In this document: piece by piece, positions 8,884-53,317 of the stretch
Layout: each line of letters begins with the position of its first letter
Numbering within the stretch: position 1 is the first letter of the stretch
NCBI GenBank assembly: GCA_913056175.1
Contig: CAJXLM010000016.1
Span: 1-53,933, forward strand
DNA length: 53,933 nt
DNA from: an uncultured Opitutia bacterium
GTDB taxonomy: Bacteria > Verrucomicrobiota > Verrucomicrobiia > Opitutales > Puniceicoccaceae
Reading direction: 5' to 3'
Notes under the pieces: model-generated
Database searches by the model: none
Told to the model about the DNA's origin: nothing
The model's input: only the letters and a program-made list of their open reading frames with translations
Program-made: the position numbers and the translations under genes

Positions 8884-8940
8884 AAGGATCCGCGGCTTGG
8901 CGGAGTTCGGCCGGCGCCCGCTGCCCGGGTGGCCGAGGGC

Positions 8941-16409: not shown

Positions 16410-17453
16410 ATGACCCTGATCCCCGCACTCAGTGAAAAGCTGCGCCGCCACCCGAAGCGCATCGTGTTTCCGGAGGGGGAGGACCCGCGGATCATGCAGG
16501 CGGCCCGGCTCTTTGCCTCGCGCGAGCTGGGCGTGCCCGTGCTTCTCGGCGAGCGCACCCGCATGAAGAAGCTCGCGCAGGGACTGGGGATTTCCCTGGA
16601 CGGCATCCGGCTCGTCGAGCCCGAGCGCACCGAGGATTTCGCGCGCAAGGAGGAGCAGCTGCAGGCGCTCCCGCGCTTCGCGGCGTCCACACCCGCGGAG
16701 ATCCGGGCGCAGGTGGCCGACCGCAATGTCTTCGCCACCCTGATGCTGGCGGGGGCGGATGTGGACGCGGTGCTCGCGGGGGCGACCTCCTCGGCCTCGA
16801 GCGCCCTGCGCCCCCTCCTGCGGATCATTCCCCGGCAGGAAGGCGTCTCCACTGTCTCCTCCATGCAGATCCTCTCCTTCGACGAGGAGGACCACCGGCC
16901 CGATCTCTTCCTCGCGGACTGCGCGGTTGTTCCCGAGCCGACCGCCCGGCAGCTCGCGGAGATCGCCCTCACCGCGGGTTCGCTCCGCTGGCACCTCGTC
17001 GACGAGCGCCCGCGGGTGGCCCTTCTCAGTTACACCACCCACGACGCGTCCTCCCGGCAGCCCTCGGTCCTCCGGGTGCGGGAGGCCACCGCGCTCGCCC
17101 GGGAGTGGATCCTCCGGCAGGGGGTGGGCATGGAGGTGGACGGGGACCTGCAGGTCGATGCGGCCCTCGACCCCGCCATCGCCCGGGCCAAGGAGGTCAG
17201 CGGGCCGGTCGGGGGGGCCGCCAACGTCCTCGTCTTTCCCGACCTGCACAGTGGCAACATCGCCTCGAAGATGATCCAGGTCCTCGGCGGGGCTCATTGC
17301 TACGGTCACCTCCTCTGCGGACTTACCCGGCCGGCCGCGGAAATCAGCCGGGGGTTGAGCGCGCTGGAAATCTTTGGCACGGCCGTCCTCGTGGCCGCGG
17401 CGGCCCTCGAGCGCTCCCTGCTCTACCCGGGTCTCCTCGAGAAGGCGGGATGA
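16410..17453 (+). CDS. pta: Phosphate acetyltransferase, short catalytic form
   Basis: A PTA_PTB domain protein of 347 residues that interconverts acetyl-CoA and acetyl phosphate. Visible signatures: RRHPKRIVFPEGEDPRIMQAA at the N-terminus, DVDAVLAGATSSASSALRPLLRII, SYTTHDASSRQPSV, a DGDLQVDAALDP element, and the C-terminal FPDLHSGNIASKMIQ with CGLTRPAAEISRG. It corresponds to the C-terminal catalytic part of long Pta; the regulatory N-terminal part is encoded as a separate protein immediately downstream (ATGA overlap). No acetate kinase gene is in the window. Confidence 0.93.
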   Translation: MTLIPALSEKLRRHPKRIVFPEGEDPRIMQAARLFASRELGVPVLLGERTRMKKLAQGLGISLDGIRLVEPERTEDFARKEEQLQALPRFAASTPAEIRAQVADRNVFATLMLAGADVDAVLAGATSSASSALRPLLRIIPRQEGVSTVSSMQILSFDEEDHRPDLFLADCAVVPEPTARQLAEIALTAGSLRWHLVDERPRVALLSYTTHDASSRQPSVLRVREATALAREWILRQGVGMEVDGDLQVDAALDPAIARAKEVSGPVGGAANVLVFPDLHSGNIASKMIQVLGGAHCYGHLLCGLTRPAAEISRGLSALEIFGTAVLVAAAALERSLLYPGLLEKAG

Positions 17454-18682
17454 GCGGCGCTCCGGAAACCATCGCCGGGGCGGACGGCAACCACCTCGAC
17501 TCACCCTACTCGACCTCGAGTTTCGCCGGGCCCCGCGATCCCCTCATCGAGGGCCCGCGGAACGTCAGTACCCGGCGGATCTTCGTGGCGGCGACCCGGC
17601 AGAACCAGGGGAAGACGACCACCTCCCTCGGCCTGTTCGGCGCCATGCAGGCCTTCTCCTCGCGGGTCGGCTACATCAAGCCGATCGGGCAGCGTTTCGT
17701 CGATGTGGAGGGGCAGAGCATCGACGAGGACTCGGTCCTCCTCGACGCCGTCTACAACCTCGACGTGCCCATCGGGGCGATCAGTCCGGTGGCGATCCAC
17801 CCGAACATGACCCGCTGGTACCTCGAGAATCCCGGCCGCAAGCTCCGGCACCTCGTCGACCTCATTTCCCGGGCCTTCGACCGGGCCGCCTTCGAGAAGG
17901 ACTACATCATCATCGAGGGCAGCGGGCACGCCGGGGTGGGGGCGGTCTTCGACCTCTCCAACGCCGCCATCGCCCGCATCTTCGGGGCGAAGGCAGTCAT
18001 CGTGTCCGGGGGCGGGATCGGGTCGCCGGTGGACGAGATCGCCATGAACAAGGCCTTCTTCGACCAGTACGGGGTGGAGGTGATCGGGGCCGTCCTCAAC
18101 AAGGTCCTCCCGGAGAAGATCGAGCTCGTCCGCGAGTACGCCGGCCGGGCCCTCGCGCGGATGGGGATTCCCCTGCTCGGGGTGCTGCCCCTGCACAAGC
18201 GCCTCGAGGCCCCCTCCCTCGGCCAGATTGTCAGCGAGATCAAGGGGCGCTGGTTGAACGGGGAAAAAACCGGCCAGCGGGAACGGGTGCTCCGGGTGGT
18301 CATCGGGACGATGACCGCGAAGGGAGTGGTCGACTACCTGCAGCCGGGGGTCCTCCTCATCGTGGCCGGCGACCGCGAGGACATCCTCTTCGCGGCGATT
18401 GCCAGTGCCGGCATCTACCAGCGCCCGAACATTTCCGGGATCCTCCTGACCCGGAACCTCCTGCCCCACCCGAAGGTGATGGAGTTCCTCCAGAAGACGG
18501 AGATCCCCACCATCATCTGCAGCGAGGAGAGCTCCACGGTGGCCTCCCGCATTCACTCCATGATGGTGAAGACGCAGCCGGCGGACGCCGACAAGATCCC
18601 CATCATCCAGGAGCTCGTGGCCGGACACACCGACCTGAAGACGATCCGCAACGCCTTCGCTCCTCCCCCCCTGCGGGGATAG
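17450..18682 (+). CDS. P-loop (BioD/CobQ-like) protein with DRTGG-type domain, resembling the N-terminal half of long Pta
   Basis: The product is 410 residues. After an unstructured leader, RRIFVAATRQNQGKTTTSLGL gives a deviant Walker A of the dethiobiotin-synthetase type (residues about 42-58). YIKPIGQRFVD and YIIIEGSGHAGVGAV follow, and then a DRTGG-like region (VVIGTMTAKGVVDYLQPGVLLIVAGDREDIL). This architecture is known as the N-terminal regulatory part of long Pta enzymes. Here it stands as its own gene, coupled by an ATGA overlap to pta, which suggests a split two-subunit or regulator/enzyme arrangement. Its own catalytic activity is unknown. Confidence is high for the fold and moderate for the Pta link. 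Confidence 0.8.
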   Translation: MSGAPETIAGADGNHLDSPYSTSSFAGPRDPLIEGPRNVSTRRIFVAATRQNQGKTTTSLGLFGAMQAFSSRVGYIKPIGQRFVDVEGQSIDEDSVLLDAVYNLDVPIGAISPVAIHPNMTRWYLENPGRKLRHLVDLISRAFDRAAFEKDYIIIEGSGHAGVGAVFDLSNAAIARIFGAKAVIVSGGGIGSPVDEIAMNKAFFDQYGVEVIGAVLNKVLPEKIELVREYAGRALARMGIPLLGVLPLHKRLEAPSLGQIVSEIKGRWLNGEKTGQRERVLRVVIGTMTAKGVVDYLQPGVLLIVAGDREDILFAAIASAGIYQRPNISGILLTRNLLPHPKVMEFLQKTEIPTIICSEESSTVASRIHSMMVKTQPADADKIPIIQELVAGHTDLKTIRNAFAPPPLRG

Positions 18683-18746
18683 GGGCGAGTCGCCAATTGG
18701 CGCGACCGCTTGCAAGCGGGAGTGTTCCGGGCCTTGCTGGGGGTTG

Positions 18747-19262
18747 ATGAAGCGTTGGCTCCTTTTTCTCCTTGCCATGTTCTCCTTCCTTTCCTCCTCC
18801 CATGGCGGGCCCGTGGAAACCGGGACCGAAGCCCCCGTGGCCACCGCTCCCGACAGCGAGGGCCGCACCGTCGACCTGGCCACCCTCTACGAAGCGGGTC
18901 CGACCCTCGTCTACTTTTACCCCAAGGCGGGCACTCCCGGCTGCACCACCCAGGCCTGCAACCTCCGCGACGCCTTCGAGGATCTCACTGAGGCCGGGCT
19001 GCAGGTCGTCGGGGTGAGCCGGGACTCCGTGGAGGCGCAGGCGCGCTTCCGGGAGCGCAACCGGTTGCCGTTCCCGCTTCTCGCGGACAAGGACGGGCGG
19101 GTCGTGGAGGCCTTTGGAGTGCCCTCCGTGCTCGGCTTTGCCTCCCGCCAGAGCTTCCTGATCGTCGATGGGAAGGTCGTCTGGCGGGACCTATCGGCCT
19201 CTCCCCGCAAGCAGGCCGCGGAAGCCCTCGCCGCTCTCCGCGAGGCGCGATCCGCCTCCTGA
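18747..19262 (+). CDS. Exported Bcp-type peroxiredoxin
   Basis: A 171-residue thioredoxin-fold peroxidase. The conserved site YPKAGTPGCTTQACNLRD carries the peroxidatic Cys and, five residues later, the second Cys of atypical 2-Cys Bcp proteins. Unlike cytosolic Bcp it begins with a signal peptide (KRWLLFLLAMFSFLSSSHGG), so it should reduce peroxides in the periplasm. ATG at 18747 is preferred over the adjacent in-frame TTG at 18744; GGGGG just upstream could serve as the ribosome site. It lies 64 bp after the P-loop gene, on the same strand. Confidence 0.9.
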   Translation: MKRWLLFLLAMFSFLSSSHGGPVETGTEAPVATAPDSEGRTVDLATLYEAGPTLVYFYPKAGTPGCTTQACNLRDAFEDLTEAGLQVVGVSRDSVEAQARFRERNRLPFPLLADKDGRVVEAFGVPSVLGFASRQSFLIVDGKVVWRDLSASPRKQAAEALAALREARSAS

Positions 19263-19356: not shown

Positions 19357-20193
19357 TCAAGAAGTCCCTCGGGCCCGCCGTCGCAGCCAGAGGAGGAGGG
19401 CAATCCCGGCGAAGACCAGGGGCAGGGAGAAGAACTGGCCCCGGGAGAGCCCGAGGATGAGGGGGGCGTCCGGGGCCCGGAAGACCTCGGTGAGGATTCG
19501 GAGGATCCCGTAGCCGAGAAGGAACTCCGCCCCGAGCTGGCCGGCCGGCAGCCGCGGGTTCCGCCAGAAGCGCCACTGCAGCCAGGCGAAGAGGAGGAGG
19601 CCCTCGGTGGCCGCCTGGTAGAGCTGGGAGGGATGCCGGGGTTCGGGCAACCCGGTGGTCGGATCGGGCGGGCTGCCCGGAAAGATCACCGCCCACGGCA
19701 CGGTGCTGGGACGCCCCCAGAGTTCCCCGTTGATGAAGTTCGCAATCCGCCCGAGGAACAGGCCGACCGGGGCCACGGTGGCCAGCCGGTCGGCGAGCGC
19801 GAGGAAGGAGATCCGGTGGCGGCGGGCGAAGAGGGCGGTGGCCACCACCACGCCGATCATGCCCCCGTGGCTGGCCATGCCTCCCTTCCAGATCTCGAAG
19901 AGGAGGAGGGGGTTCCGGAGGAAGGCCGCCGTGTCGTAGAAGAGGACGTAGCCGAGCCTCCCCCCGGCGATCACCCCGATGAGCAGGTAGGTAAAGAGGT
20001 CGAGCTCCCCGCCGGGACCGAGGGGTGAGCGCCCGCGCGCCCGGTAGAGGCGGAGGAGGAGGAAGGCCGCGAGGAAACCGAGCAGGTAGGCGAGGCCGTA
20101 GAAGCGGATGCCCTCCAAGGGAAAGCCCTCCGGGAAGCGGACGAGGAAGGGCGACCAGTCGTGCACCCAGTGGTCGGGCTCGCGCGGGTTCAT
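19357..20193 (-). CDS. lgt: Phosphatidylglycerol-prolipoprotein diacylglyceryl transferase
   Basis: A seven-helix inner-membrane enzyme, 278 residues, that attaches diacylglycerol to the lipobox Cys of prolipoproteins. Hallmarks: IRFYGLAYLLGF at the first helix, AGGRLGYVLFYD, the essential His in MASHGGMIG, the signature GRIANFINGELWGRP, and RHPSQLYQAATEG with a final GYGILRILTEVFR helix region. Its ATG overlaps the mnmA stop (ATGA), so it is co-translated with mnmA. Confidence 0.97.
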   Translation of the reverse strand: MNPREPDHWVHDWSPFLVRFPEGFPLEGIRFYGLAYLLGFLAAFLLLRLYRARGRSPLGPGGELDLFTYLLIGVIAGGRLGYVLFYDTAAFLRNPLLLFEIWKGGMASHGGMIGVVVATALFARRHRISFLALADRLATVAPVGLFLGRIANFINGELWGRPSTVPWAVIFPGSPPDPTTGLPEPRHPSQLYQAATEGLLLFAWLQWRFWRNPRLPAGQLGAEFLLGYGILRILTEVFRAPDAPLILGLSRGQFFSLPLVFAGIALLLWLRRRARGTS

Positions 20194-21296
20194 GCGGGCA
20201 GGGGAATCTCGCTGTGCAGTTCCTCGTAGACGGCGCCCCCGAGAAGCTCGTCTCCCCGGTAGAGAGCGAGGATCTGGCCGCGGGCGAGGGCCCGCTGCGG
20301 CTCCGCGAAGGAAACCTCTATCCCCTCCTCGCCGATCCCCTCGACCACCACCGGGGTGGGCGGGTCGCGGTAGCGGACGCGCGCGAGGAGGGTTTCGCCC
20401 TCGTGCGGGGGAGGGTCCCCGATCCAGTTCGCCCGGGCCACCCGGGCCCCGGTCTGGAAGAGGCCGGGGGTCTCCGGCTGGTCAAAGCCGACGACGAGTT
20501 CGTTCCGGTCGAGGTCCTTGGCCACCACCACGTAGGCCCGGTGGTCCGTGTTCGAGGGGATCCCGATGCCCCGCCGCTGGCCGAGGGTGAAGGTGTGCAG
20601 CCCCCGGTGCTCGCCGAGGACCCTCCGGTCGGTGTCCACGATCGGTCCGGGCCGGTCCGGGAGGTAGTGGGCGAGAAACTCGTCGATCTTCACCTTGCCG
20701 AGGAAACAGATGCCTTGGCTGTCCCTCTTCGCCGCGTTGGGCAGGCCGATCCGGCGGGCCAGCGCGCGGACCTCGGGCTTCCGGAGATGGCCGACCGGGA
20801 ACCGGGCCCACTCGAGATCCTCCCGCCGGGTCAGCGCGAGGAAGTAGGACTGGTCCTTCTCCGGGTCGACCCCGGCCCGCAAATGGTAGCGGCCGTCCGC
20901 CTCCCTCCCGCCGCGGCAGTAGTGGCCGGTGGCGATGCCGCCGAAGCCCTCCGCCCGGGCGTGGGTGAGAAAGGTGCCGAACTTGATTTCCCGGTTGCAG
21001 AAGATGTCCGGGTTCGGGGTGATCCCGCGCCGGTAGCCCTCCACGAGATAGGTGACGACCGCGCGGTGGTATTCCTCCACAAGGTTGACGATCCGGAAGG
21101 GCAGTCCGAGGTGGGCGGCTGCGGCCCGCGCATCCTCGATGTCCTCGGCCGCCGGGCAGTCCCCGAGCTCCTCCTCATTCTGCCAGGTGCGGATGTAGGC
21201 GGTCTCCACGGGATAGCCCTCCTCCCGGAGGAGGTAGGCGCTCACCGAGGAGTCCACCCCGCCGGAGAGTGCCACGAGAATGGGGGCTTCGCTCAT
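20190..21296 (-). CDS. mnmA: tRNA-specific 2-thiouridylase MnmA
   Basis: This 368-residue cytoplasmic enzyme makes the s2 modification of U34 in tRNA-Lys, -Glu and -Gln. The PP-loop reads ALSGGVDSSV at residues 9-18. The two catalytic cysteines are in NPDIFCNREIKF and KRDSQGICFLG. The C-terminal half has HTFTLGQRRGIGI and the beta-barrel domain ending AVYEELHSEIP. The ATG at 21296 is chosen because the PP-loop follows at the usual distance. It is divergent from coaE across 103 bp and coupled to lgt downstream. Confidence 0.97.
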   Translation of the reverse strand: MSEAPILVALSGGVDSSVSAYLLREEGYPVETAYIRTWQNEEELGDCPAAEDIEDARAAAAHLGLPFRIVNLVEEYHRAVVTYLVEGYRRGITPNPDIFCNREIKFGTFLTHARAEGFGGIATGHYCRGGREADGRYHLRAGVDPEKDQSYFLALTRREDLEWARFPVGHLRKPEVRALARRIGLPNAAKRDSQGICFLGKVKIDEFLAHYLPDRPGPIVDTDRRVLGEHRGLHTFTLGQRRGIGIPSNTDHRAYVVVAKDLDRNELVVGFDQPETPGLFQTGARVARANWIGDPPPHEGETLLARVRYRDPPTPVVVEGIGEEGIEVSFAEPQRALARGQILALYRGDELLGGAVYEELHSEIPLPA

Positions 21297-39566: not shown

Positions 39567-40464
39567 GCCTCCCCGCGACCTCGCCGCCCTCCGGGCCCTG
39601 CGGGCGGACGGAACCACGCGGCTGGGCGTGGTCGGCTGGCCGATCGACCACTCCGCCAGTCCAGCCCTGCACGGGGCGGCCCTTGCCACCCTCGCCGCTG
39701 CCGAGCCGTCCTTCGCCGCCTGGGAGTACCGCGCCTACGCCCTCCGCCCGGAGGAGCTCGCCGAGGCCCTCCCCCTCGCCGCGGAGCGGGGTTTCCGCGG
39801 GCTCAACCTCACGGTCCCCCACAAGGTGGAGGTCCTCCCGCTGGTCGACCGGCTGGCCCCCAGCGCCGAGCGGATCGGGGCGGTGAACACCCTCCTCTGG
39901 GAGGAGGATGGCCTGCACGGGCTGAACACGGACGGCTACGGCCTCGAGGAGGGTCTCCGCGAGGCCTTCGGGCTCGGCATGGCCGGGCAGTCGGTGCTGG
40001 TCCTCGGGGCCGGCGGGGCCGCCCGGGCGGCGGTCGCGGAGGCGGTGCACCAGGGTGCCGCCCGCGCGTTCGTGGCCAACCGCACGGAGGATCGCGCGGT
40101 GGAGTTGGCCCGGCGCTTCGCGGGCGGGGTCACCGAGGTTGCCGCCGTGCCCCTCGCCGATGCGGGGCACCGGGCGGAGCCCGGCACGCTGGTGGTCAAC
40201 GCCACCTCGCTCGGGCTCCGCCCGGGGGATCCCCAGCCCTTTCCGGCCGCCGAACTGCCGGAGCGCTGCCTCCTCTACGACATGGTCTACAACCCCCCGG
40301 AGACCCCGTGGCTGGCGGCTGGGCGGGCCCGCGGCTACCCGGTGGCGAACGGCCTGGGCATGCTCCTCCACCAGGGGGCCCGCGCCCTCGAGATCTGGAC
40401 GGACCGCCCGGCCCCGCTCGCGCCGATGCGGGAGGCCCTCGAGGGCTTCCTCGCGGGAGCCTGA
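39547..40464 (+). CDS. aroE: Shikimate dehydrogenase
   Basis: The product is 305 residues and reduces 3-dehydroshikimate with NADPH in aromatic amino-acid synthesis. Signatures: [19 protein letters not shown] (substrate Ser pair region), [15 protein letters not shown] (catalytic Lys), [21 protein letters not shown] (catalytic Asp), [13 protein letters not shown] and [14 protein letters not shown] (NADP site), and the C-terminal [16 protein letters not shown]. The ATG at 39547 lies inside the 3' end of the SirB1-like gene. 5-oxoprolinase begins 14 nt downstream, giving a three-gene run. Confidence 0.96.
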
Positions 40465-40478
40465 AAAAGGGAGCCGGC

Positions 40479-43400
40479 ATGCCGCGGGCAGGCACCGGCA
40501 ACGGGGAGGACGGGCGGACCGGCAACGGCCGCTGGCAGTTCTGGGTCGACCGCGGGGGTACCTTCACCGATATCGTGGCGCGTCGCCCGGACGGCTCCCT
40601 GGCGAGCCGCAAGCTCCTCTCGGAGGATCCGGAGCGCTACCGGGACGCCGCCGTCGCCGGCATCCGGGCCTTCCTCGGGCTCGCCGCGGGGGAGCCGGTC
40701 CCCGCGGACCGGATCGACTCGGTCCGCATGGGGACCACAGTGGCCACGAACGCCCTCCTCGAGCGCCGGGGAGAGCCCACGGCACTCCTCACGAACCGCG
40801 GCTTCCGCGACCAGCTCCGCCTCGGGTACCAGAACCGCCCGGACATCTTTGCCCGCGCCATCCGGCGGCCGGAGCAACTCTACGAGCGGGTGGTCGAGGT
40901 GGGCGGACGACTCACCGCGGGCGGGGAGGAGCGCGAGCCGCTCGACGAGGACGAGGTGCGGGCCGCCCTCGCCGGGCTGCGCGCGGAGGGCTTCCGGGCG
41001 ATCGCGGTGGTCCTGCTGCACGGCTACCGCTTCCCGGACCACGAGCGCCGCATCGGGGAGCTCGCCCGCGGGGCGGGCTTCCCCCAGGTCTCCCTCTCCC
41101 ACGAGGTCAGCCCGCTCCTCCGGCTGGTCAGCCGCGGCCAGACGACGGTGGTGGACGCCTACCTCTCCCCGATCCTCCGCCGCTATGTCGAGCAGGTCCG
41201 CGCGGAGCTGGGCGGGGTCCGCCTGCTCTTCATGCAGTCGAACGGGGGGCTGGTGGAGGCGGACTTCTTCCAGGGCAAGGATGCCATCCTCTCCGGGCCG
41301 GCGGGTGGACTGGTCGGGGCGGTCCGCAGCGCGGAGGCGGCCGGGGTGGACCGCCTGGTCACCTTCGACATGGGGGGGACCTCCACGGATGTCGCCCACT
41401 ACGCGGGCGAGCTGGAGCGTTCCTTCGAGAGCGAGGTGGCCGGGGTCCTCCTGCGCTCGCCGCTCCTGCGCATCCACACGGTGGCCGCCGGGGGCGGTTC
41501 CCTTCTCCACTTCGACGGGGAGCGCTTCCGGGTGGGACCGGACAGCGCCGGGGCGGTGCCCGGCCCGGCCTGCTACCGCCGGGGCGGCCCCCTCGCGGTC
41601 ACCGACGCCAACCTGCGGGTGGGGCGGATCCAGCCGGACTTCTTCCCGGCGGTCTTCGGGCCGGAGGGCACGGAACCGCTCGACGCTGCGGGGGTCCGCG
41701 CCCGTTTCGAGGAGCTCGCCGCGGAGGTGGAGGCCGCCACGGGGGAGCGGCGGGCCCCGGAGGAGATCGCCGAGGGCTTTCGCCGGATCGCCACGGAAAA
41801 CATGGCCCATGCGATCAAGAAGATCTCCATCGAGGAGGGCCGCGAGCTCGCCGGCTACACCCTGCAGTGCTTCGGGGGGGCCGGCGGACAGCACGCCTGC
41901 GCGATCGCCGATGTGCTCGGCATGGACCGCATCCTCCTGCATCCACTCGCCGGGGTGCTCTCCGCCTACGGGATGGGGCGGGCCGACCTGCGGGTGCTCC
42001 GCGAGCGGGCGGTCGAGGAAACCCTCGACGCGGAGTCTCTCGTCCGGGCGGAGTCCCTCGCCGGGGAGCTGGCGGCGGCCGCCGCCACGGAGCTCCGCGC
42101 GCAGGGCCAGCCGCCGGAAACCATCGCTTGCCACTCGCGGCTGCACCTGCGCTACGCGGGCACGAACACTCCCCTGGAAATCCCGGCCGGTCCCCTGCCG
42201 GAGGTCATCGGGGCCTTCGAGGAGGAACACCGTCGCCGCTTCGGCTTCGTCAGCCCGGAGAAACCCCGCGTCCTCGAGGCGGTCGTGGTGGAGGCGGTCG
42301 GCGCGGCGGCCGGGCCGGGCCCGTCCGGCGGTGGGGAGGCGCTCGCGGGGAACGCGGGGGACGCGGCGGGGGAGGCGCCGGAAGAAGTGGGCGAGTCGTC
42401 CCCCCGCGCCCGGGTTCCCCTCTACACGGAGGGCCGCTGGTGGGAGGTGCCGGTCTTCGCGCGGGACGACCTGTGCCCGGGCCAGCGGGTGCCCGGACCG
42501 GCCCTGGTCATCGAGCCGCAGTCGACGACGGTGGTCGATCCGGGCTGGACGGCCGCCCGGGAGCCGGACGGGCACCTCCTCCTCGTGCGCACGGCCCCGC
42601 GCCGGGCCGAGCGGGCCGCGGCCACCGCGGTCGATCCGGTCCTCCTCGAGGTCTTCCACAACCTCTTCCGGGCGGTGGCCGAGCAGATGGGATCGGCTCT
42701 CGAGAATACGGCGCACTCGGTCAACATGAAGGAGCGGCTGGACTTTTCCTGCGCGCTCTTCGACCCGCGGGGAGGACTGGTCGCCAACGCTCCCCACATC
42801 CCGGTGCACCTCGGCTCGATGGGGGAGAGTGTCCGCGCGGTGCTCGCCGCCCGGGAGGGGGACCTTCGGCCGGGGGACGTGCTCGTGCTCAACGATCCCT
42901 ACCACGGGGGAACCCACCTGCCCGATGTCACCGTGGTCTCGCCGGTCTTCGACGGGCGGGGGGAGGACCTGCTCTTTCTCGTCGCCAGCCGGGGCCACCA
43001 CGCGGATGTGGGAGGGGCCACGCCGGGCTCCATGCCCCCGGATTCCCGCTCCCTCGCGGAAGAGGGCATTCTCTTCCGCGACTTCCTCCTCGTCCGCGAC
43101 GGGCACTTCCGCGAGGAGGAGGTGCGCGCCCACCTCGCGGGGGGACGCTGGCCGGCCCGCAACCCGGAACAGAACCTCGGCGACCTCCGCGCCCAGGTCG
43201 CCGCCAACGAGCGCGGGATCCGCGAGATCCGCCGGATGATCGACCACTTCGGGCTCCGGGTGGTCCACGCCTACATGGGCCATGTGCAGGACCACGCCGC
43301 CCGGGCGGTCGGGGAGGTCATCGCCCATCTCGAAGAGGGATCGTTTGCCTACGCGATGGACAACGGCGCGGAGGTACGGGTGGCGGTGACCGTGGACCGC

Positions 43401-44165
43401 GCGGAGGGGCGGGCCCGCATCGATTTCTCGGGGACTTCCCCCCAGCGGGAGGACAACTTCAACGCCCCGCCGGCGGTGACCCGGGCCGCGGTCCTCTATG
43501 TGTTTCGCACCCTGGTCCGCGAGCCGATCCCGCTGAACGAGGGTTGCCTGCGGCCGCTGGAGATCGTCCTCCCCGAGGGCTGCCTGCTCCGGCCCTCCTT
43601 CCCCCATGCGGTGGTCGCGGGGAATGTGGAGACCTCCCAAGTGGTCACGGACGCGCTCTACGGGGCGCTCGGGGTGCAGGCGGCCGCCCAGGGGACCATG
43701 AACAACCTCACCTTCGGGAACGGGGAGTACCAGTACTACGAGACGGTTTGCGGGGGTGCCGGGGCCGGGTCGGGCTACCACGGGGCTGGCGGGGTCCATA
43801 CCCACATGACGAATTCGCGCCTCACCGATCCGGAGGTGCTCGAGCTGCGCTACCCGGTCCTCGTGGAGGAGTTTTCCCTGCGCGGGGGCTCGGGGGGCGA
43901 GGGCCGCTGGAGGGGAGGGGAGGGTGTCGTCCGGCGTCTGCGCTTCCTCGAGTCCCTCACCCTCGGCCTGCTCGCCAACCGGCGCCGGATCCCCCCCTTC
44001 GGCCTCGCCGGCGGGGGCCCGGGCGGGCGGGGGGAGACGATTCTCGATTACCCGGATGGCTCCCGGGAGATTCTGCCGTCCACCGCCCAGCGAGCCCTTC
44101 CCGCCGGTACCCGCCTCACCCTCCGTACCCCGGGCGGGGGGGGGTACGGGCGGGAAGGGCGCTAA
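40479..44165 (+). CDS. 5-oxoprolinase / hydantoinase A+B fusion
   Basis: A 1228-residue ATP-dependent amidohydrolase, the length of single-chain 5-oxoprolinase (OplaH type). The HyuA half: [53 protein letters not shown] and [17 protein letters not shown] (ATPase motifs). The HyuB half starts near residue 720 with [20 protein letters not shown] and continues [38 protein letters not shown] and [19 protein letters not shown]. It probably converts 5-oxoproline to glutamate, although hydantoin substrates cannot be excluded. ATG at 40479 has GGGAG upstream. It is the last gene of the SirB1-aroE run and the last core gene before the accessory region. Confidence 0.9.
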
Positions 44166-44286: not shown

Positions 44287-44550
44287 TCAAACATTCCCCT
44301 GGTAGCAATTATCATCCCCACTGGGGAGAATGCTACCCCATTGACATCCGCCCGCGGCACTCTCCAGCTCCTCATCGCTCAAGTCTTCGGCGCGGCTGGC
44401 CTGCGCGCGGAGGAATTCGGCTTGGGTGATCGCAAATCCCGCCTCCCCGGCGATGGCCACGGGGTCCGCGCCCTCGGCGCGGAGCTTTTCCTGGAGGGAG
44501 GAGTCCTGACGGACGGCTTCAACGAATCGGGTGAGGTCTTCCTGGCTCAT
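44287..44550 (-). CDS. Nif11-type RiPP precursor peptide 1 (intact)
   Basis: The product is 87 residues. The leader (1-68) is a Nif11-like domain: MSQEDLTRFVEAVRQDSSLQ, AIAGEAGFAITQAEFL, and an end LSDEELESAAGG, the double-glycine cleavage site of C39 peptidase/transporters. The 19-residue core CQWGSILPSGDDNCYQGNV has two Cys and two Ser, compatible with thioether or disulfide formation. Nif11 leaders are known on lanthipeptides and other RiPPs. No modifying enzyme or exporter is in the window. The ATG at 44550 fixes the leader by comparison with two paralogues at 47872 and 48428. It has no Shine-Dalgarno but shares an upstream element with the 47872 gene. Confidence 0.88.
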   Translation of the reverse strand: MSQEDLTRFVEAVRQDSSLQEKLRAEGADPVAIAGEAGFAITQAEFLRAQASRAEDLSDEELESAAGGCQWGSILPSGDDNCYQGNV

Positions 44551-44608
44551 GGGGGAGGAGGATCGGGTTGGTTTTGGAGAACGATTCACGAGGGGCGGAA
44601 AAGGTAGC

Positions 44609-44642
44609 CGCAAGGTAAGAGAACCGGCCGCCAACTTTATTC
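44609..44642 (-). promoter_or_regulatory. Shared upstream element of the Nif11 genes (copy 1)
   Basis: On the minus strand GAATAAA is followed after 14 nt by CTCTTACCTTGCG, which ends 58 nt before the ATG of precursor 1. The same bipartite element with the same 14-nt gap lies 57 nt before precursor 2. The flanks differ, so this looks like a conserved promoter or operator, not a recent duplication. Confidence 0.5.
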
Positions 44643-44764
44643 GCAGATCTCGATAAAAACCGACCCGTCTGCCGCGAGCCGATCGGAGAAGCCTCCGCGC
44701 CCCGGGGCGATCCGCGTCCGGGTGGGCGAAGAAGCCATGGGCATCCCCCTTCCCGTTTGATCTT

Positions 44765-45413
44765 CACCACAGAGGGCACAGAGAGCACAGAGGGTTGGGA
44801 GAGGAGACCGTCTGCCGATCGCCTTCCTCCTTGCTATCCCTTCCCCGAGGCCCTCCGCGGACCCCGCTCTCTCGATCGAGCCCGAGACCGCCCGGCAAAC
44901 CCAAAACCCAGTCCCCGTTTCCCCCCTCTGTGCCCCCTGTGCCCTCTGTGGTGATCCGGAAAAACCCCGTGGGAGCCCGCCGCTTCCCGATCGCCAATCC
45001 GCCCCTTTCCCTCCCGTTTGATCTTCACCACAGAGGGCACAGAGAGCACAGAGGGATGGGAGAGGATACCGTCCGCCGTTCGCCTTCCTCCTTGTTTCCC
45101 TCTCCCGAGGTCCCGTGCCCGAACACCAGAGTTCCCGGAAGTACGAAACCGTGTTTTTCTTTCCTGTCCCCGTGTATCCCCGGAGCCCTCTGTGGTGAGT
45201 CGGAAGCTTGGTCCACCACAGAGGGCACCGAGAGCATAGAGGGGAGGGGAGAGGAAATTTTCGCCGGCCACTTCCCCTCCTTCCCGTTCCCCACGATCCT
45301 CCATGGTTCTCCTCCCGGTGAACCCCGCTCCCTCGATCGACTCTCCAGGACCCCCAGCAAACACAAAACCTCGCCCGCCTTCCCCCCTCTGTGTCCCCTG
45401 TGCCCTCTGTGGT
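44765..45413. repeat. Inverted-repeat element array, cluster 1 (three units)
   Basis: Left arms (beginning CACCACAGAGGGCACAGAG) lie at 44765-44794, 45026-45055 and 45213-45243. Inverted right arms (ending TGCCCTCTGTGGTG) lie at 44924-44953, 45185-45197 (partial) and 45385-45413. They define three units of 189, 172 and 201 bp with different interiors (types 1, 2, 3), separated by linkers of 72 and 15 bp. The 72-bp linker contains GCCCGCCGCTTCCCGATCGCC, which recurs after other units. Short frames through the repeats (HHRGHREHRG or TTEGTESTEG) are by-products. The rest of 44551-45625 holds no gene. Confidence 0.9.
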
Positions 45414-45625
45414 GATCCGGGAAAACCCGCGGTAGCCCGCCGCTTCCCGATCGCCGCAGAAATCAACCGGCCCCGGCCCGTCCGCCTGCCCGTTGCCTAA
45501 CCCGTCGCCTGGCCTCCGCGGTTCGGTGCGGCGGACCTCGGTTGGCAGCGCCGGAAGGGAAGGGCTGGTCGGTCGGGTGGTCCTTTTCTGTTGAGCTCCC
45601 GCACGATCTGTAAGGAAAGGGTAGG

Positions 45626-47350
45626 ATCGACACCCTGCTCCATTCCCCGTTCGCCGAGGTCGCCGTCCTGCTAGTGATGGCGGCCGGGATTGGCTTGCTC
45701 GGCCTCCTCCTGCGCCAACCGCTGATTGTCAGTTTCATCGCCGTCGGGCTTCTCGCCGGGCCCTCCGTCCTCGATGTGGTCCGGTCCGATGCGGAGATCG
45801 AACTGCTTTCAAATCTCGGGATCGCCGTCCTTCTGTTCCTGGTTGGCATCAAGCTCGATGTGAAGCTCATCCGCTCGTTGGGCCGGATTGCCCTCCTGAC
45901 TGGGCTGGGTCAGGTGCTGTTCACTTCGGTGTTCGGCTACCTCATTGGGCTGGCCCTCGGGCTGGGGCAGGTCACCAGCCTCTATGTCGCGGTTGCGCTG
46001 ACATTTTCGTCGACGATCATCATCGTGAAGTTGCTGTCGGACAAACGGGAGATCGACAGCCTGCACGGCCAGATCGCGTTGGGATTTCTGATCGTGCAGG
46101 ACCTCGTCGTCGTGCTGGCGATGATCGTGCTCTCGGCCATCGGCATCGGTGCGGCGGAGGAGGGCGGTCACGGCAGCGGAAGGCTTCCGCTGGTGCTTTT
46201 TTCCGGCCTCGCGATGGTGGCGTTCGTCGTCCTGTTCGTTCGCTACCTCGCCAACCCGCTGACGGCTCGGCTGGCCCGCGCGCCCGAGCTCCTTGTCCTC
46301 TTCGCCATCGCCATGGCAGCCATGTTTGCGGCGGCCGGAGAACTCGTCGGCCTCGGGAAGGAGGTAGGCGGGCTGCTGGCGGGCGTATCCCTGGCCTCGA
46401 GCCCCTACCGCGAGACCATCGCGGCCCGCCTGGCACCCCTGCGCGATTTCCTGTTACTGTTCTTTTTCATTTCCTTGGGGTCGACGCTCGACCTCTCGCT
46501 GCTCGGCGCGCACATCGGTGGCGCCGTTGTGTTCTCGGTTTTCGTCCTGGTTGGCAATCCGCTGATTGTCCTCGCGATTATGGGGGCGATGGGCTACCGC
46601 AAGCGCACCGGTTTTCTCGCGGGGCTAACCGTCGCGCAGATCAGTGAGTTTTCGCTGATCTTTGTCGCCATGGGCGTATCCCTGGGCCACCTCGGAGAGG
46701 AAACTCTCGGGTTGGTCACCATGGTCGGGCTGGTGACGATTGCCGCCTCGACCTACATGATTACCTACTCCCACCAGCTCTACGCCCTCTTTGAACCGGC
46801 GCTCCGTCTTTTCGAGCGCTGGCGCGATCGGCGTGAGCCCCCCGACCCGGAGGTCCGGGGGAAGGGTGGCTACAAGGTGATCATTTTTGGTTTGGGCCGC
46901 TTCGGTACCGCGATTGGCTTGCGCCTGCAAAAGCGCGGCTTCCGGGTTCTGGGGGTGGACTTCAACCCTCTGGCCATTCGCCGCTGGCGGGAGGCCGGAC
47001 TCAACGCCCGCTTCGGCGACGCGACCGACGCGGAATTCATTGAGGAGCTGCCCCTTGACCAAGCCGAGTGGATGGTCGCCACCGTGCCTTCCCTCCCCAC
47101 CGGGCTCAGCCATGAGGATACGCGGACCACGCTGATCCAGCTAGCGCGGGCCGCGGGCTTCCGTGGCCGGATCGCGATCGCCTCTCACCAACCCCCAGAG
47201 ACGGAGGAACTCCGCGGGGCGGGCGCCGACCTCGTGCTGGAGCCGTTCCACGATGCGGCCGACCGCGCTGTCGAGCTGCTCTGCGGGGCGGCCGCGGAGG
47301 AGCGCACCGATATTCCGACGATCGCCACGGAAGACAAGCAGGCTCCTTGA
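45626..47350 (+). CDS. Kef-type cation:proton antiporter with C-terminal TrkA-N domain; probable ATC start
   Basis: A CPA2-family monovalent cation/H+ antiporter, 574 residues with the start used here. About twelve helices cover residues 5-385 (LRQPLIVSFIAVGLLAGPSVL, FLVGIKLDVKLIRSLG, STIIIVKLLSDKREID, ISLGSTLDLSLLG, AQISEFSLIFVAMG). A Rossmann TrkA-N domain (VIIFGLGRFGTAIGLRLQKRG ... VDFNPLA) follows. The first standard start is GTG at 45674, but 16 codons upstream of it continue the family N-terminus (DTLLHSPFAEVAVLL). The frame there has only ATC (45626) or CTG after a stop at 45611-45613. AAAGG lies 5 nt before ATC. It lies alone between precursor 1 and precursor 2. Confidence 0.88.
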   Translation: MDTLLHSPFAEVAVLLVMAAGIGLLGLLLRQPLIVSFIAVGLLAGPSVLDVVRSDAEIELLSNLGIAVLLFLVGIKLDVKLIRSLGRIALLTGLGQVLFTSVFGYLIGLALGLGQVTSLYVAVALTFSSTIIIVKLLSDKREIDSLHGQIALGFLIVQDLVVVLAMIVLSAIGIGAAEEGGHGSGRLPLVLFSGLAMVAFVVLFVRYLANPLTARLARAPELLVLFAIAMAAMFAAAGELVGLGKEVGGLLAGVSLASSPYRETIAARLAPLRDFLLLFFFISLGSTLDLSLLGAHIGGAVVFSVFVLVGNPLIVLAIMGAMGYRKRTGFLAGLTVAQISEFSLIFVAMGVSLGHLGEETLGLVTMVGLVTIAASTYMITYSHQLYALFEPALRLFERWRDRREPPDPEVRGKGGYKVIIFGLGRFGTAIGLRLQKRGFRVLGVDFNPLAIRRWREAGLNARFGDATDAEFIEELPLDQAEWMVATVPSLPTGLSHEDTRTTLIQLARAAGFRGRIAIASHQPPETEELRGAGADLVLEPFHDAADRAVELLCGAAAEERTDIPTIATEDKQAP

Positions 47351-47780
47351 GCGCGAGGGGCGAGGGGCGTGGTTCAAGGCTGGGGGCCCGGGGAATTGGC
47401 CTCGGGATCAGCTTCCTTTGTCTCGGACACGGAATGCCCTTACCCGGAGAGGGGGGCATGGGAGCGAAGCGATCGATCAGGGGGCGGATCGGTCGGTCCT
47501 CGCGTGGGTTTCTTCTTCCGCGGACCCATCCGTAGCTACGACTCGCTCCCCGACCCCCGGAATCATGCGGTGATTCGACCTCATTTTGCTCCACTCTCGA
47601 CTCGATCCACACGAGTCTCTCCCGCCCCTCCCAGGATCCCGCGACCCGCGATCACTGCACTTCCCCATCAACAATCCGGTCGGGGTGCCGCTGCCAATCT
47701 CCTCCGACCTCCTGCCTCGGCTCATTCGACCCTCCAACTGAGCCGACTCTCATTTTCTTCTCTCCAAGCCCGGGTTTTGA
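47351..47780. other. Intergenic stretch without recognised gene
   Basis: No supported gene. Short frames are of unbiased composition and lack family features. The sequence is less GC-rich and more pyrimidine-rich on the plus strand from about 47560 to 47770 than in the core. No CACAGAGG-type arms are present here. Confidence 0.6.
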
Positions 47781-47814
47781 GAATTTATCCGCGTGAGGCG
47801 GCTCTTACCTTACG
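47781..47814 (+). promoter_or_regulatory. Shared upstream element of the Nif11 genes (copy 2)
   Basis: GAATTTA at 47781 is followed after 14 nt by CTCTTACCTTACG (47802-47814), ending 57 nt before the ATG of precursor 2. It matches the element before precursor 1 at 12 of 13 positions in the second box with identical internal spacing. The pseudogene at 48428 does not have it at this distance. Confidence 0.5.
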
Positions 47815-47871
47815 AGCGAAGGCATTCGGCCTTTGCCCCCAACAATAGAACCTATAGCATCCAGAAACCCG

Positions 47872-48195
47872 ATGTCCCAGCAAGAGTACGAACGATTTTT
47901 GGAAGCCGTGAAGGCGAACCCGGCCCTCCAGGAGAAACTCAAGGCCGCCAGCGACAACGATGCGATTGTCACCATCGCCCGGGCGGCGGGCTTCATGATT
48001 TCGCTGGACGATCTGGAAAAGGATCGGGCCGAACTCTCCGAAAGGGACCTGGAAGAGGTTGCCGGGGGCTCGCGGGCCCACCGGATCGCTTCCCACAATC
48101 ATTGCCATCACTCCCCGGCTCCGGAAGTGGTCGTGAACAGCAGCAAGGGGTACTACTTGAAGAGGCTCTACCACGGTCAGTGCGACGAGTCGTAA
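47872..48195 (+). CDS. Nif11-type RiPP precursor peptide 2 (intact)
   Basis: The product is 107 residues. Leader 1-66: MSQQEYERFLEAVKANPALQ, TIARAAGFMISLDDLEKD and the end LSERDLEEVAGG. The core is 41 residues, begins SRAHRIASHNHCHHS and ends LYHGQCDES. It has two Cys, seven Ser and a His-rich start, and is unrelated to the cores of the other copies. A conserved leader with a changing core is the typical pattern of Nif11 families. There is no Shine-Dalgarno before the ATG; an upstream in-frame TTG at 47833 is an alternative but would lengthen the conserved N-terminus. No tailoring enzyme is adjacent. A shared upstream element lies 57 nt before the start. Confidence 0.88.
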   Translation: MSQQEYERFLEAVKANPALQEKLKAASDNDAIVTIARAAGFMISLDDLEKDRAELSERDLEEVAGGSRAHRIASHNHCHHSPAPEVVVNSSKGYYLKRLYHGQCDES

Positions 48196-48315
48196 GGCGT
48201 TGCGCGGGATAGGCTTCCGATACGCCCCGGCCGCGGTCGCTCCTCCTCGCCGCGAGCCTGCTGACCCATCCTCGGGTCGTTTCCGGTCCCTCTTCGGTTT
48301 CCGTGTCGAATCCGG

Positions 48316-48354
48316 GGAAAGGGGTGTCAATCCTTGGGAATCAGGCCCCTTTCC
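48316..48354. repeat. 9-bp perfect inverted repeat upstream of the third Nif11 locus
   Basis: GGAAAGGGG (48316-48324) and CCCCTTTCC (48346-48354) are perfect complements with a 21-nt loop, ending 73 nt before the ATG of the amber-interrupted precursor. It could be a terminator after precursor 2, though no T-tract follows, or part of the promoter region of the next locus. Confidence 0.35.
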
Positions 48355-48427
48355 TTGACCGTCGGATTCCCCGCCCAGCCAAGCCAGTTTTCCTCACAAT
48401 CCCAACCATCCCCCCATCCAACGACCC

Positions 48428-48700
48428 ATGTCCCAGGAAGATCTCACCAAGTTTCTCGAAGCCGTCCGCTAGGACTCCTCCCTCCAGGAGAAGCTTTGCG
48501 CGGAGAAGTCCGACCCCTTGGCCATTGCCAAGGAGGCAGGATTTTCCGTCACGCAAGCCGAGCTCATGCGTGTCCACGCCAACCATATCCAGAATCTCAG
48601 TGACGAAGAACTGGAAAGTGTCAGTGGAGGGAGTCTGGTGGGTGCGGCGGTGATCCTTGGGGCCGGTATCGGCCTCAACGTTTCGCTCGTGGAGTGCTGA
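48428..48700 (+). pseudogene. Nif11-type RiPP precursor 3, interrupted by an in-frame TAG
   Basis: The leader reads MSQEDLTKFLEAVR, then TAG at 48470-48472, then DSSLQEKLCAEKSDPLAIAKEAGFS and so on to LSDEELESVSGG. Precursor 1 has Gln (CAG) at the same place, so a single C-to-T change explains the stop. The rest of the frame is intact to TGA at 48698-48700. The core has 22 residues, begins SLVGAAVILGAG and ends in Cys; it is hydrophobic and unlike the other cores. Nothing else has decayed, so the mutation is recent, a readthrough codon, or a sequencing error. Leader similarity to precursor 1 is high. Confidence 0.85.
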
Positions 48701-48777
48701 TCGGTGGACCAGTGAATTTTCTGCCCACCAGTTGCAAGCCAACTCTTTCTCAACGAAACGAACTTGGATGCGACTGA

Positions 48778-48970
48778 TCCGGCATTGGTCTCCATCGCTT
48801 TTTCGGTGCCGTCCGCGAAACCTCCTCTTTGCGGGAGAAGCCGAGGTCCTCAGCAGACGCTGACGCCGTGAGGGCCGTTGCCAACGCTGCAGGGATCTCG
48901 ATTGCTGCCAAGGAGCGGAAGGACGCCAAGGCCATCTCTCAGAAGAGAAAGGGAAAGTGGGGCCGGGGGA
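48778..48970 (+). pseudogene. Nif11-type precursor 4, degenerate leader remnant ending at a repeat
   Basis: In the frame of 48808 the translation AVRETSSLREK, then DADAVRAVANAAGISIAAKE, matches the Nif11 leaders (AVRQDSSLQEK and DPVAIAGEAGFAITQAE). The match extends upstream to about 48778, but no start codon remains. After about 48925 a frameshift is needed. In the next frame SLRRERESGAGG corresponds to the leader end LSDEELESAAGG. Directly after this GG (about 48970) the sequence becomes the interior and right arm of the CACAGAGG-type repeat, so no core remains. This is a pattern-based call; the alignment is short but collinear over some 55 residues. Confidence 0.65.
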
Positions 48971-49300
48971 CGCCCGGCAAACACAAAACCTCGCCCCCCT
49001 TCCCCCCTCTGTGTCCCCTGTGTCCTCTGTGGTGATCCGGAAAAATCTGGCGGTAGCCCGCCGCTTCCCGATCGCCAACCCGCCCCCCTCCCTCGCGTTC
49101 TTGCTTCACCACAGAGGGCACAGAGAGCACAGAGGGGAGAGAAAAGGAGACCGCCCTCCGATCGTTTTTCTCCCGGTTTTTCGTTCTCCGCGATTCTCCT
49201 TGGTGTTGAACCCACGAACCAGGCCGCGCGTTGGACCTCAAGGCCCCTTGGAAAGACCAACTTTTTTCCTCCCCCTGTCGGTGTCCTCTGGGGTGATTCC
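48971..49300. repeat. Inverted-repeat element array, cluster 2
   Basis: A solitary right half-unit (CCCGGCAAACACAAAACC from 48972, right arm 49005-49033) is followed by the standard linker (73 bp, with GCCCGCCGCTTCCCGATCGCC). Next is a full-length unit with left arm 49107-49136 and a decayed right arm at about 49272-49300. The unit is about 194 bp, as in the other clusters. The half-unit lacks its left arm; its place is taken by the Nif11 remnant. Confidence 0.85.
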
Positions 49301-49795: not shown

Positions 49796-50060
49796 AAGGA
49801 GGAAGTGACCGACCCGCTTGCCACCCGCAATCCTTCAAATCTTCCAGTCCGCTTTTCGGGCTCCCCGGAGGGAAAAAGGCGGGCCAAACCGAAGGAAAGC
49901 GACGGTTGGGGTAGGGTATCCTGCAATTCCCGGTGGCCCCTACAATTCCCTTTATGCGTCCTCTCCGGTTCGCGCCCTTTGGCGATCTGAATTTGCCGGG
50001 GATCCGGTTTTCCTCATCGATCCTGCCTGGATTGGCCCCCGGGTTCGGGGAGCTTCCTGT

Positions 50061-51170
50061 TCCCCACAGAGGGCACGACGAGTACCGGGGGCGGGGAAGG
50101 AGGAAAATTTCGCCGATCGTTTTACCCCTCCTTTCCCTTCTCCCCAATCCTCCATGGTGCCCATCCCGGTGAAGCCCGCTCCCTCGATCAACCCTCCAGG
50201 ACCCCCAGCAAACACAAAACTTAGCCCGCCTTTCCCCCCTCTGTGTCCCCTGTGCCCTCTGTGGTGATCCGGGAAAACCCCGTGGCAGCCCGCCGCTTCC
50301 CGATCGCCGCGGAAATCCGCCGGCCCCGGCCCGCCAACCCGCCCCCCTCCCGCGCGTCCTTGCTTCACCACAGAGGACACAGAGGGCACAGAGGGGTGGG
50401 AGAGGAGACCGTCCGCGGTTCGCTTTTCTCGCTGTTCCCGTTCCCCGAGGCTCTCCGTGGTATCCACCCCGTGGACCCTGCTTCCTCGATCGAGCCCGAG
50501 ACCGCCCGGCAAACCCAAAACCCAGTCTCCTTTCCCCCCTCTGTGTCCCCTGTGCCCTCTGTGGTGATCCGGGAAAACCCCGTGGTAGCCTGCCGCTTCC
50601 CGATCGCCAACCCGCCCCCCTCCCTCGCGTTCTTGCTTCACCACAGAGGACACCGAGGGCACGGAGGCGAGGGGAGAGGAGACCGTCCGCAGTTTGCCTT
50701 CCTCCTTGTTTCCCTCTCCCGAGGTCCCCCGCGTTGCCCGCTCGATGGGCCCGGGGTCGTGTGCCCGAACCCCAGAGCTCCTTGCAAACACGAAACCGGT
50801 TTTTTTCCTGTCCCCCTATATCCCCGGAGTCCCTTGTGGTGAGTCGGAGGCTTGGTCCACCACAGAGGGCACCGAGAGCACAGAGGGGAGGGGTGAGGGT
50901 GATGACCGTCCGCCACTCTTTTTTCTCCCTGTCTCCCTTCGCCAAGGTCCCCCGTGGTGCCTACCCCATGGCCCCGGGTCGCGCGGCCGAGCCCCGGAGC
51001 TCCCGGAAAACAAGAAACCTCGTTTTCCTTTCCTGTCCCCCCGATTCCCCATGGTGCCCACCCCTTGGGTCCTGCACCCGCGGTCGCCTCCCGGGATTCC
51101 CGGGACCGAGTGCCCTACTTACCACCCGCCTTTCTCGCTGTGCTCCCGATGCCCCCTGTGGTGTTCCTTC
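50061..51170. repeat. Inverted-repeat element array, cluster 3 (four units)
   Basis: Units: 50061-50266 (decayed left arm, type 3 interior), 50366-50567 (type 1), 50639-50842 (type 2, partial right arm) and 50857 to about 51060 (type-2-like, right arm decayed). Linkers are 99, 71 and 14 bp; the 71 and 14 match the 72 and 15 of cluster 1. The 99-bp linker has a 27-bp insertion around the palindrome GCGGAAATCCGC. A further arm remnant (CCCCCTGTGGTGTTCC) is near 51150. The flanking 49796-50060 holds no recognised gene. Confidence 0.88.
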
Positions 51171-52978: not shown

Positions 52979-53035
52979 CCCCGGGCCAGCGGGCAATTGA
53001 CCCCGCGGTGCACCCGCCAGCCCCCGTTGCTGCTT

Positions 53036-53143
53036 CACCACAGAGAACACAGAGAGAAGAGGAGGGTGGAAATCTTTGGCCGGTCGCTTCCCTCTGTTTT
53101 TCCATTTCCCACCCCCTCCGTGTCCTCTGTGCCCTCTGTGGTA
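53036..53143. repeat. Inverted-repeat element, short unit
   Basis: A left arm (CACCACAGAGAACACAGAG, 53036-53066) and a right arm (53114-53143, ending TGCCCTCTGTGGT) are separated by only about 47 bp, so the unit is 108 bp instead of about 200. The standard linker motif follows in altered form (GTAGCCCGCCGGTTCC near 53163). The remaining sequence to 53317 holds no gene. Confidence 0.8.
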
Positions 53144-53317
53144 CCCCGGAACCGACCCCGCCGTAGCCCGCCGGTTCCGGTCTGCCCATGGAACCAGCGG
53201 AACACCGCCAGCCACCCCTCTCTCCATTCCCGGCGAGTGGAGCCCGAACTATCCGTGGACCAAGGCGTGACCCCGCGGGAGAGGGTCCGCACGTGGATCC
53301 GCGGACAGTCTGGAGTG

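What the first reader, a model, noticed from the sequence alone, without database searches (positions are those of the whole stretch)
44287..48970. Orphan family of Nif11-type RiPP precursors with shared leaders and unrelated cores
Seen: four loci within 4.7 kb (44287-44550 minus; 47872-48195, 48428-48700 and about 48778-48970 plus) share a Nif11-like leader with a double-glycine end (ESAAGG, EEVAGG, ESVSGG, ESGAGG). The three cores that survive have 19, 41 and 22 residues and no similarity: one Cys/Ser core, one His-rich, one hydrophobic with a terminal Cys. Known: Nif11 leaders serve promiscuous modification enzymes and C39-type transporters, with precursors often far from the enzymes. Inferred: this is a dispersed precursor set served in trans; no LanM, radical SAM, YcaO or ABC-C39 gene is in the window.
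Basis: partly seen in the sequence, partly recalled or inferred. Interest (0 to 1): 0.8.

Follow-up and report, generated by a model that had tools for sequence, protein, structure and literature searches.

The report
Scattered prochlorosin-like lanthipeptide precursor genes
The window holds two working and two decayed genes of a family of about two dozen small-peptide genes scattered over an Opitutales (Verrucomicrobiota) genome, all probably cross-linked by a single enzyme made elsewhere in that genome, as in the prochlorosins of marine cyanobacteria.

Summary
Precursors A (44287-44550 minus, 87 aa) and B (47872-48195 plus, 107 aa) are intact Nif11-leader RiPP precursors (TIGR03798, 70 and 72 bits; cut-off 32). 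C carries an in-frame TAG in its leader; D is a frameshifted remnant.

The trans-acting interpretation is supported. The 2.61 Mb genome has 23 leader matches on 9 contigs (17 intact), but only one C39 transporter and one LanM. Both lie on contig C43, with NHLM HlyD, a second ABC subunit, an outer-membrane efflux protein and six intact precursors. No YcaO or SPASM domain is present.

The LanM has the CCG zinc motif of ProcM-type enzymes and groups with picocyanobacterial LanMs (100/99), not with the only other LanM found in its order. Cores are enriched in Cys (6.3% against 0.8%; leaders 0 of 1130). Paralogue DNA identity falls to chance at the first core base. One paralogue pair keeps flanks and leader but has unrelated cores.

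No other genome in a sample of 388 from the phylum has such a set. I read this as a prochlorosin-like system outside Cyanobacteria: a known kind in a new host lineage. One Nif11 leader is fused to a protein encoded behind a sigma factor. No modified product was shown.

The parts
44287..44550 (-). Precursor A, intact, 87 aa: Nif11 leader 44347-44550, GG end, core of 19 aa (CQWGSILPSGDDNCYQGNV) at 44290-44346, TGA stop
   Evidence: TIGR03798 70.0 bits; leader profile 114.2 bits; translation
47872..48195 (+). Precursor B, intact, 107 aa: Nif11 leader 47872-48069, GG end, His-rich core of 41 aa with two Cys at 48070-48192, TAA stop; its leader is closer to Synechococcus UW105 leaders (58%) than to A (44%)
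   Evidence: TIGR03798 72.5 bits; translation; identities
48428..48700 (+). Precursor C, pseudogene: in-frame TAG at 48470-48472 (codon 15, Gln in close paralogues); leader to 48631, core of 22 aa at 48632-48697
   Evidence: translation; leader profile 103.1 bits with one TAG inside
48790..48936 (+). Precursor D, degraded remnant of a leader (profile positions 6-52), no start codon, frameshifted before the GG-like end; followed directly by a dispersed repeat
   Evidence: 25.7 bits, E 3.8e-5; frames; repeat copy from 48962

Best explanation
The window genes are members of a prochlorosin-like class II lanthipeptide precursor family. Each intact gene makes a 61-70 residue Nif11 leader ending in GG, followed by a short hypervariable core, in most cases with both Cys and Ser/Thr. 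The only LanM of the genome (contig C43, CCG zinc site) is proposed to recognise the common leader in trans, dehydrate Ser/Thr and close (methyl)lanthionine rings in many different cores. The only C39 peptidase-transporter (same locus, with NHLM HlyD, a second ABC subunit and an outer-membrane protein) is proposed to cut after GG and export the products. Shown here: gene family, leader conservation, core hypervariability and Cys enrichment, dispersal, single LanM and single PCAT, CCG motif, placement in the ProcM-type clade, absence of YcaO and SPASM. Inferred from the known biochemistry of ProcM/SyncM and PCAT: leader binding, ring formation, cleavage, export. The family evolves by duplication and scattering of the gene, purifying selection on the leader, wholesale replacement of the core, and decay of some copies (C and D in the window). 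The role of the products is unknown; secreted peptides acting on other cells is the default guess.
For: Leader family and GG end; one LanM and one PCAT in one locus with the whole NHLM exporter and six intact precursors; no YcaO, no SPASM; CHG...CCG zinc motif and placement with Synechococcus, Prochlorococcus and Roseovarius LanMs at 100/99; leaders 42-58% identical to leaders from Synechococcus UW105 and Prochlorococcus AG-412-I05, two genomes that themselves hold 29 and 12 Nif11 matches; Cys 6.3% in cores against 0.76% background, P about 1e-17, and 0 of 1130 in leaders; leader dN/dS mostly 0.12-0.5; identity falls to chance at the leader-core border; pair C1/C33 with only the core replaced; C43 shares the window's tetranucleotide signature.
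Against: Three intact cores have no Cys and cannot form lanthionine. The genome is a draft (96.5% complete), so a second synthetase cannot be excluded. No expression or product data. Radical SAM enzymes without a SPASM domain, and other tailoring enzymes, were not searched for. The CCG motif alone is not specific to promiscuous enzymes.
Confidence: 0.85

Rival explanations
1. The dispersed genes are mostly decaying, unexpressed copies. The working system is confined to the C43 locus and its own precursors, and the window copies are evolutionary debris.
For: Six of 23 matches are damaged, two of them in the window; the working machinery sits only on C43.
Against: A and B are full length with intact GG and Cys-bearing cores. 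Leaders of dispersed copies keep low dN/dS (73b/33 0.16, 54c/33 0.16, 16a/33 0.20). Dispersed cores carry Cys and Ser/Thr far above background.
Confidence: 0.08
2. The precursors are Nif11-leader RiPPs, but a different, unrecognised enzyme modifies the dispersed ones, and the LanM serves only its neighbours.
For: Three cores lack Cys; the genome is a draft; not every RiPP enzyme class was searched for.
Against: No YcaO and no SPASM domain. The dispersed and C43 leaders are one family: 43a matches A at 77% over 118 bp. Genes annotated near the dispersed precursors include no evident RiPP enzyme.
Confidence: 0.05
3. These are small cellular Nif11-domain proteins with no RiPP function.
For: Nif11 proteins as a family were described as having no known function (PMC2887384).
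Against: Full-length match to the RiPP-precursor model TIGR03798 with GG end, LanM and PCAT in the same genome, hypervariable Cys-rich C-termini.
Confidence: 0.02

Closest known systems
Prochlorosin/synechococsin systems (ProcM/ProcA, SyncM/SyncA) of Prochlorococcus and Synechococcus
   Same: One CCG-type LanM, many Nif11-leader precursors with a DEELExxxGG-like leader end and unrelated cores, precursor genes scattered over the genome (PMC10783134); LanM in the same clade; leaders up to 58% identical
   Different: Host is Opitutales (Verrucomicrobiota), about 68% GC. The PCAT is closer to Opitutales, Bacteroidales and Planctomycetota transporters (47-53%) than to those beside the cyanobacterial LanMs (35%). 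A Nif11 leader is fused to a protein encoded behind a sigma factor. Products not shown.
lah cluster of Lachnospiraceae bacterium C6A11 (LahA1-9, LahT)
   Same: Several Nif11-leader precursors with diverse cores and a C39 transporter that cuts at double Gly (PMC6363468); leader positions -4, -7, -12 hydrophobic here too
   Different: Nine precursors in one cluster there; here scattered over nine contigs
Nif11-derived peptides with the NHLM transporter set (TIGR03798 with TIGR03794/03796/03797; Haft et al. 2010, PMC2887384)
   Same: Complete exporter set and a large paralogous precursor family
   Different: That paper found TIGR03798 only in nitrogen-fixing bacteria of its time, partly with thiazole/oxazole machinery; here there is no YcaO and the synthetase is a LanM

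Membership tests
Nif11-like leader RiPP precursor (TIGR03798 / PF07862) | Leader matches the curated profile above its cut-off | tested here: met
   A 70.0 and B 72.5 bits, cut-off 32.3
Nif11-like leader RiPP precursor (TIGR03798 / PF07862) | Double-glycine leader end with hydrophobic -4, -7, -12 | tested here: met
   17 of 17 leaders; rule from PMC6363468
Nif11-like leader RiPP precursor (TIGR03798 / PF07862) | Family-wide similarity ends at the GG motif | tested here: met
   identity 0.74 before, 0.23 after the border, chance 0.27
Prochlorosin-like (ProcM-type) class II lanthipeptide system | LanM with dehydratase and LanC-like domains | tested here: met
   TIGR03897 699 bits; PF13575 and PF05147
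Prochlorosin-like (ProcM-type) class II lanthipeptide system | CCG zinc motif in the cyclase domain | tested here: met
   WCHG...HLCCGRMG; motif from PMC10783134
Prochlorosin-like (ProcM-type) class II lanthipeptide system | LanM falls in the clade of picocyanobacterial LanMs | tested here: met
   100/99 in two trees; single-precursor LanMs of Roseovarius and Mycetohabitans fall there too. ProcM of MIT9313 itself was not in the tree; Synechococcus UW105, named in PMC10783134 among strains with prochlorosin precursors, was
Prochlorosin-like (ProcM-type) class II lanthipeptide system | One synthetase, many precursors scattered over the genome | tested here: met
   one LanC-like match, 23 leader matches on nine contigs; draft genome
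Prochlorosin-like (ProcM-type) class II lanthipeptide system | Cores carry Cys and Ser/Thr | tested here: met
   14 of 17 cores have both; three lack Cys
Prochlorosin-like (ProcM-type) class II lanthipeptide system | (Methyl)lanthionine rings installed by one enzyme in many cores | not testable with these tools
   needs co-expression and mass spectrometry
Prochlorosin-like (ProcM-type) class II lanthipeptide system | Host is a picocyanobacterium (where the name has been applied) | tested here: not met
   order Opitutales inferred from G030 = L082; hence 'prochlorosin-like', not a prochlorosin
NHLM export system | HlyD, peptidase-ABC and second ABC subunit (TIGR03794, 03796, 03797) | tested here: met
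   264, 1073 and 874 bits, all above cut-off
TOMM (thiazole/oxazole) system | YcaO cyclodehydratase in the genome | tested here: not met
   no PF02624 match
Radical SAM/SPASM RiPP system | SPASM-domain enzyme in the genome | tested here: not met
   no PF13186 match; radical SAM without SPASM not searched

The most novel reading that the evidence does not exclude
The system senses its own substrate load. The 203-aa protein encoded directly behind the sigma-70-type factor on C43 is an anti-sigma factor whose C-terminal Nif11 leader domain docks on the LanM or PCAT (or is cut at its own GG). Occupancy of the maturation machinery by dispersed precursors would then change the release of the sigma factor and set their expression. 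This would come with a radiation of core peptides parallel to that of the picocyanobacteria.
Probability: 0.12. Interest if true: 0.8.

Novelty: new member of a known kind. Interest (0 to 1): 0.55.

Why it matters
Scattered prochlorosin-like precursor sets served by one promiscuous ProcM-type synthetase are described for picocyanobacteria. A comparable set in an Opitutales genome, not found in the other sampled genomes of its phylum, gives a second lineage in which to study how one enzyme tolerates many substrates and how cores are renewed while leaders stay fixed. It also offers a distant ProcM relative for peptide engineering.

Tried and rejected
Recoding of TAG as Gln (both internal TAGs sit at Gln codons): rejected, because three intact paralogues end with TAG and the C1 copy also lost its start codon. 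Dispersal by the CACAGAG-type repeat: rejected as a general cause, because no such repeat clusters occur in the fetched stretches of the other eight precursor contigs. The 3' flank shared by C1 and C33 as a genomic repeat: rejected, only these two copies exist. Phage or plasmid carriage: leader and LanM scans of viral contigs found no relative; the leader was not found in plasmids. TOMM and SPASM-type modification: enzymes absent. Contamination of the LanM contig: unlikely from its tetranucleotide signature. The leader alignment was too variable for a collection scan. Rfam: nothing at gathering score in 43.5-53.9 kb. A single-sequence fold of the Nif11 fusion was too weak overall (pTM 0.30) for a fold search.

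Full report
Observation. The window is contig C16 of a 2.61 Mb, 84-contig genome (96.5% complete, 0.07% contamination). Precursors A (44287-44550 minus) and B (47872-48195 plus) translate to 87 and 107 residues, as reported. Both match the Nif11 leader family TIGR03798 at more than twice the cut-off. C (48428-48700) has an in-frame TAG at codon 15. D is a relic (48790-48936, E 3.8e-5) without a start codon, its 'ESGAGG' lying in another frame. The window therefore holds two intact genes, one pseudogene and one relic.

The rest of the family. A profile of the leaders finds 23 matches in the genome on nine contigs. I count 17 intact genes, including one on C43 where the leader is the C-terminal part of a larger protein and one whose first two codons lie beyond a contig end. 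The damaged ones are C, D, C1 (start ATC plus an internal TAG), two matches at one decayed place on C73, and one relic on C43. Genes lie singly (C1, C5, C33, C50, C51), in small groups (C16, C54, C73) and in the C43 locus.

The machinery. The genome has one peptidase C39 match and one LanC-like match, both on C43. The C43 locus reads: precursor 2270; NHLM HlyD 2967-4223 (TIGR03794); PCAT 4284-6446 (TIGR03796, 1073 bits); ABC2 6443-9151 (TIGR03797); precursor 9383; LanM to 13753 (TIGR03897, 699 bits); precursors 13874, 14694 and 15807; outer-membrane efflux protein 17044-18873; sigma-70-type factor 19692-20579; Nif11 fusion 20576-21187. No YcaO and no SPASM domain was found in the genome. C43 shares the window's tetranucleotide signature (correlation 0.87 with window 1-36 kb; four control loci at most 0.52).

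Type of LanM. The cyclase zinc site reads CHG...CCG. This CCG motif is described as characteristic of ProcM-like enzymes (PMC10783134), but it also occurs in other cyanobacterial LanMs, so the tree matters more. In 38- and 20-row trees the enzyme groups with Synechococcus UW105, Prochlorococcus AG-412-I05, a Synechococcaceae MAG and Roseovarius at 100/99; Mycetohabitans and Streptomyces NBC_00829, added in the second tree, join the same clade. The other LanM of the same order (G030, the same record as the Opitutales MAG L082, by identical BLAST values) falls far away. This is how the order Opitutales is inferred. LanM over the cut-off is found in 2 of 52 relatives and 2 of 388 sampled genomes of the phylum (own genome included). 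The leader profile hits only one other genome of the 388, with one copy. Acquisition by horizontal transfer followed by expansion is the likely history (inference). The PCAT is closer to Opitutales, Bacteroidales and Planctomycetota transporters beside LanM genes (47-53%) than to the cyanobacterial ones (35%), so the locus may be a mosaic.

Substrates. Cys makes up 6.3% of the residues of the 17 intact cores against 0.76% in called proteins of the fetched contigs (P about 1e-17). The leaders have none in 1130 residues. Ser/Thr is 15.4% against 10.0%. Fourteen cores have both Cys and Ser/Thr; three have no Cys. All 17 leaders have GG and hydrophobic residues at -4, -7 and -12, the positions that dock in the LahT protease (PMC6363468). 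Leader dN/dS is below 1 in all pairs that could be computed and mostly below 0.5; many dS values are near saturation.

How cores change. Mean pairwise DNA identity is 0.74 in the last six leader bases and 0.23 in the first six core bases, chance being 0.27. Most pairwise DNA matches run from a few bases before the start codon to, at most, the leader end. One pair, C1 and C33, shares 5' flank, leader and 3' flank, but its cores do not align. The shared 3' flank occurs nowhere else in the genome and contains, out of frame in both, GEEGY(V/L)CLVGC-stop, which may be an older core put out of frame by an indel. This is an inference from one pair; the phase of substitutions (5 synonymous and 8 non-synonymous codons over 105 bases in that frame) does not prove it. 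From memory, not retrieved here, an indel-driven mode of core renewal was proposed for prochlorosins (Cubillos-Ruiz et al. 2017).

Dispersal. C54 also carries a tyrosine recombinase and C73 a transposase-like gene, but the neighbours annotated at the other sites show no mobile element. The CACAGAG-type repeats of the window are absent from the fetched stretches of the other precursor contigs.

Function. The likely mechanism is leader-guided modification in trans by one LanM and cleavage plus export by one PCAT. Ring formation and export are inferred from characterised relatives. The target of the peptides is unknown; prochlorosins also lack an assigned function (PMC11251773).

Novelty. Literature searches in the open-access library found no description of such a set in Verrucomicrobiota, which is weak evidence because most subscription papers are not held. 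Multi-precursor Nif11 sets outside Cyanobacteria are known (lah, PMC6363468; Pelotomaculum, PMC2887384). I therefore file this as a new member of a known kind. The Nif11 fusion behind the sigma factor is the least expected part. Its N-terminal part has no Pfam match; calling it anti-sigma rests on its position and helical look only. A single-sequence model gives its best confidence in the Nif11 part (pLDDT 86-91) with a mean of 69.

Noticed in passing
L024 (G000:C43), C43:19692-20579 and 20576-21187: A sigma-70-type factor gene is followed, overlapping by four bases, by a gene for a 203-aa protein with an unassigned helical N-terminus and a C-terminal Nif11 leader (residues about 114-181, ending in GG) plus a 23-residue tail. 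Possible anti-sigma factor carrying a RiPP leader.
   Followed up: partly
window 44706-45456, 48962-49191, 50051-50898, 53025-53151: Dispersed repeat with TTCACCACAGAGGGCACAGAGAGCACAGAGG and its reverse complement; direct copies 4081 bases apart (44881 and 48962) bracket the antiporter gene and precursors B-D. No such clusters in about 128 kb of the other precursor contigs.
   Followed up: partly
L029 (G000:C33) 6163-7605: A nitric-oxide synthase oxygenase-domain protein (PF02898, E 1.1e-130) is encoded about 120 bases upstream of the C33 precursor.
   Followed up: no
L025 (G000:C54) 3544-4725 and 11-2320; L026 (G000:C73) 4211-5434: Tyrosine recombinase and DUF5906 protein on the contig with three precursors, and an ISL3-type transposase match on the contig with two; both contigs have a weaker tetranucleotide match to the rest, as expected for mobile DNA.
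   Followed up: partly
L029:7920-8110 and G000:C1:120201-120360: Paralogues C33 and C1 share flanks and leader but not cores; both keep an out-of-frame GEEGY(V/L)CLVGC-stop downstream, possibly an older core.
   Followed up: yes
L185 11539-15195 (Streptomyces sp. NBC_00829 plasmid): A LanM 41% identical to the C43 enzyme, with a 107-aa hypothetical protein upstream ending in Cys-rich CCWVFTSVCTV, a likely precursor annotated only as hypothetical; tyrosine recombinase genes lie on both sides.
   Followed up: partly
window 40308-44165: Hydantoinase A and B (oxoprolinase type) fused in one 1285-aa reading frame, just beside precursor A.
   Followed up: no
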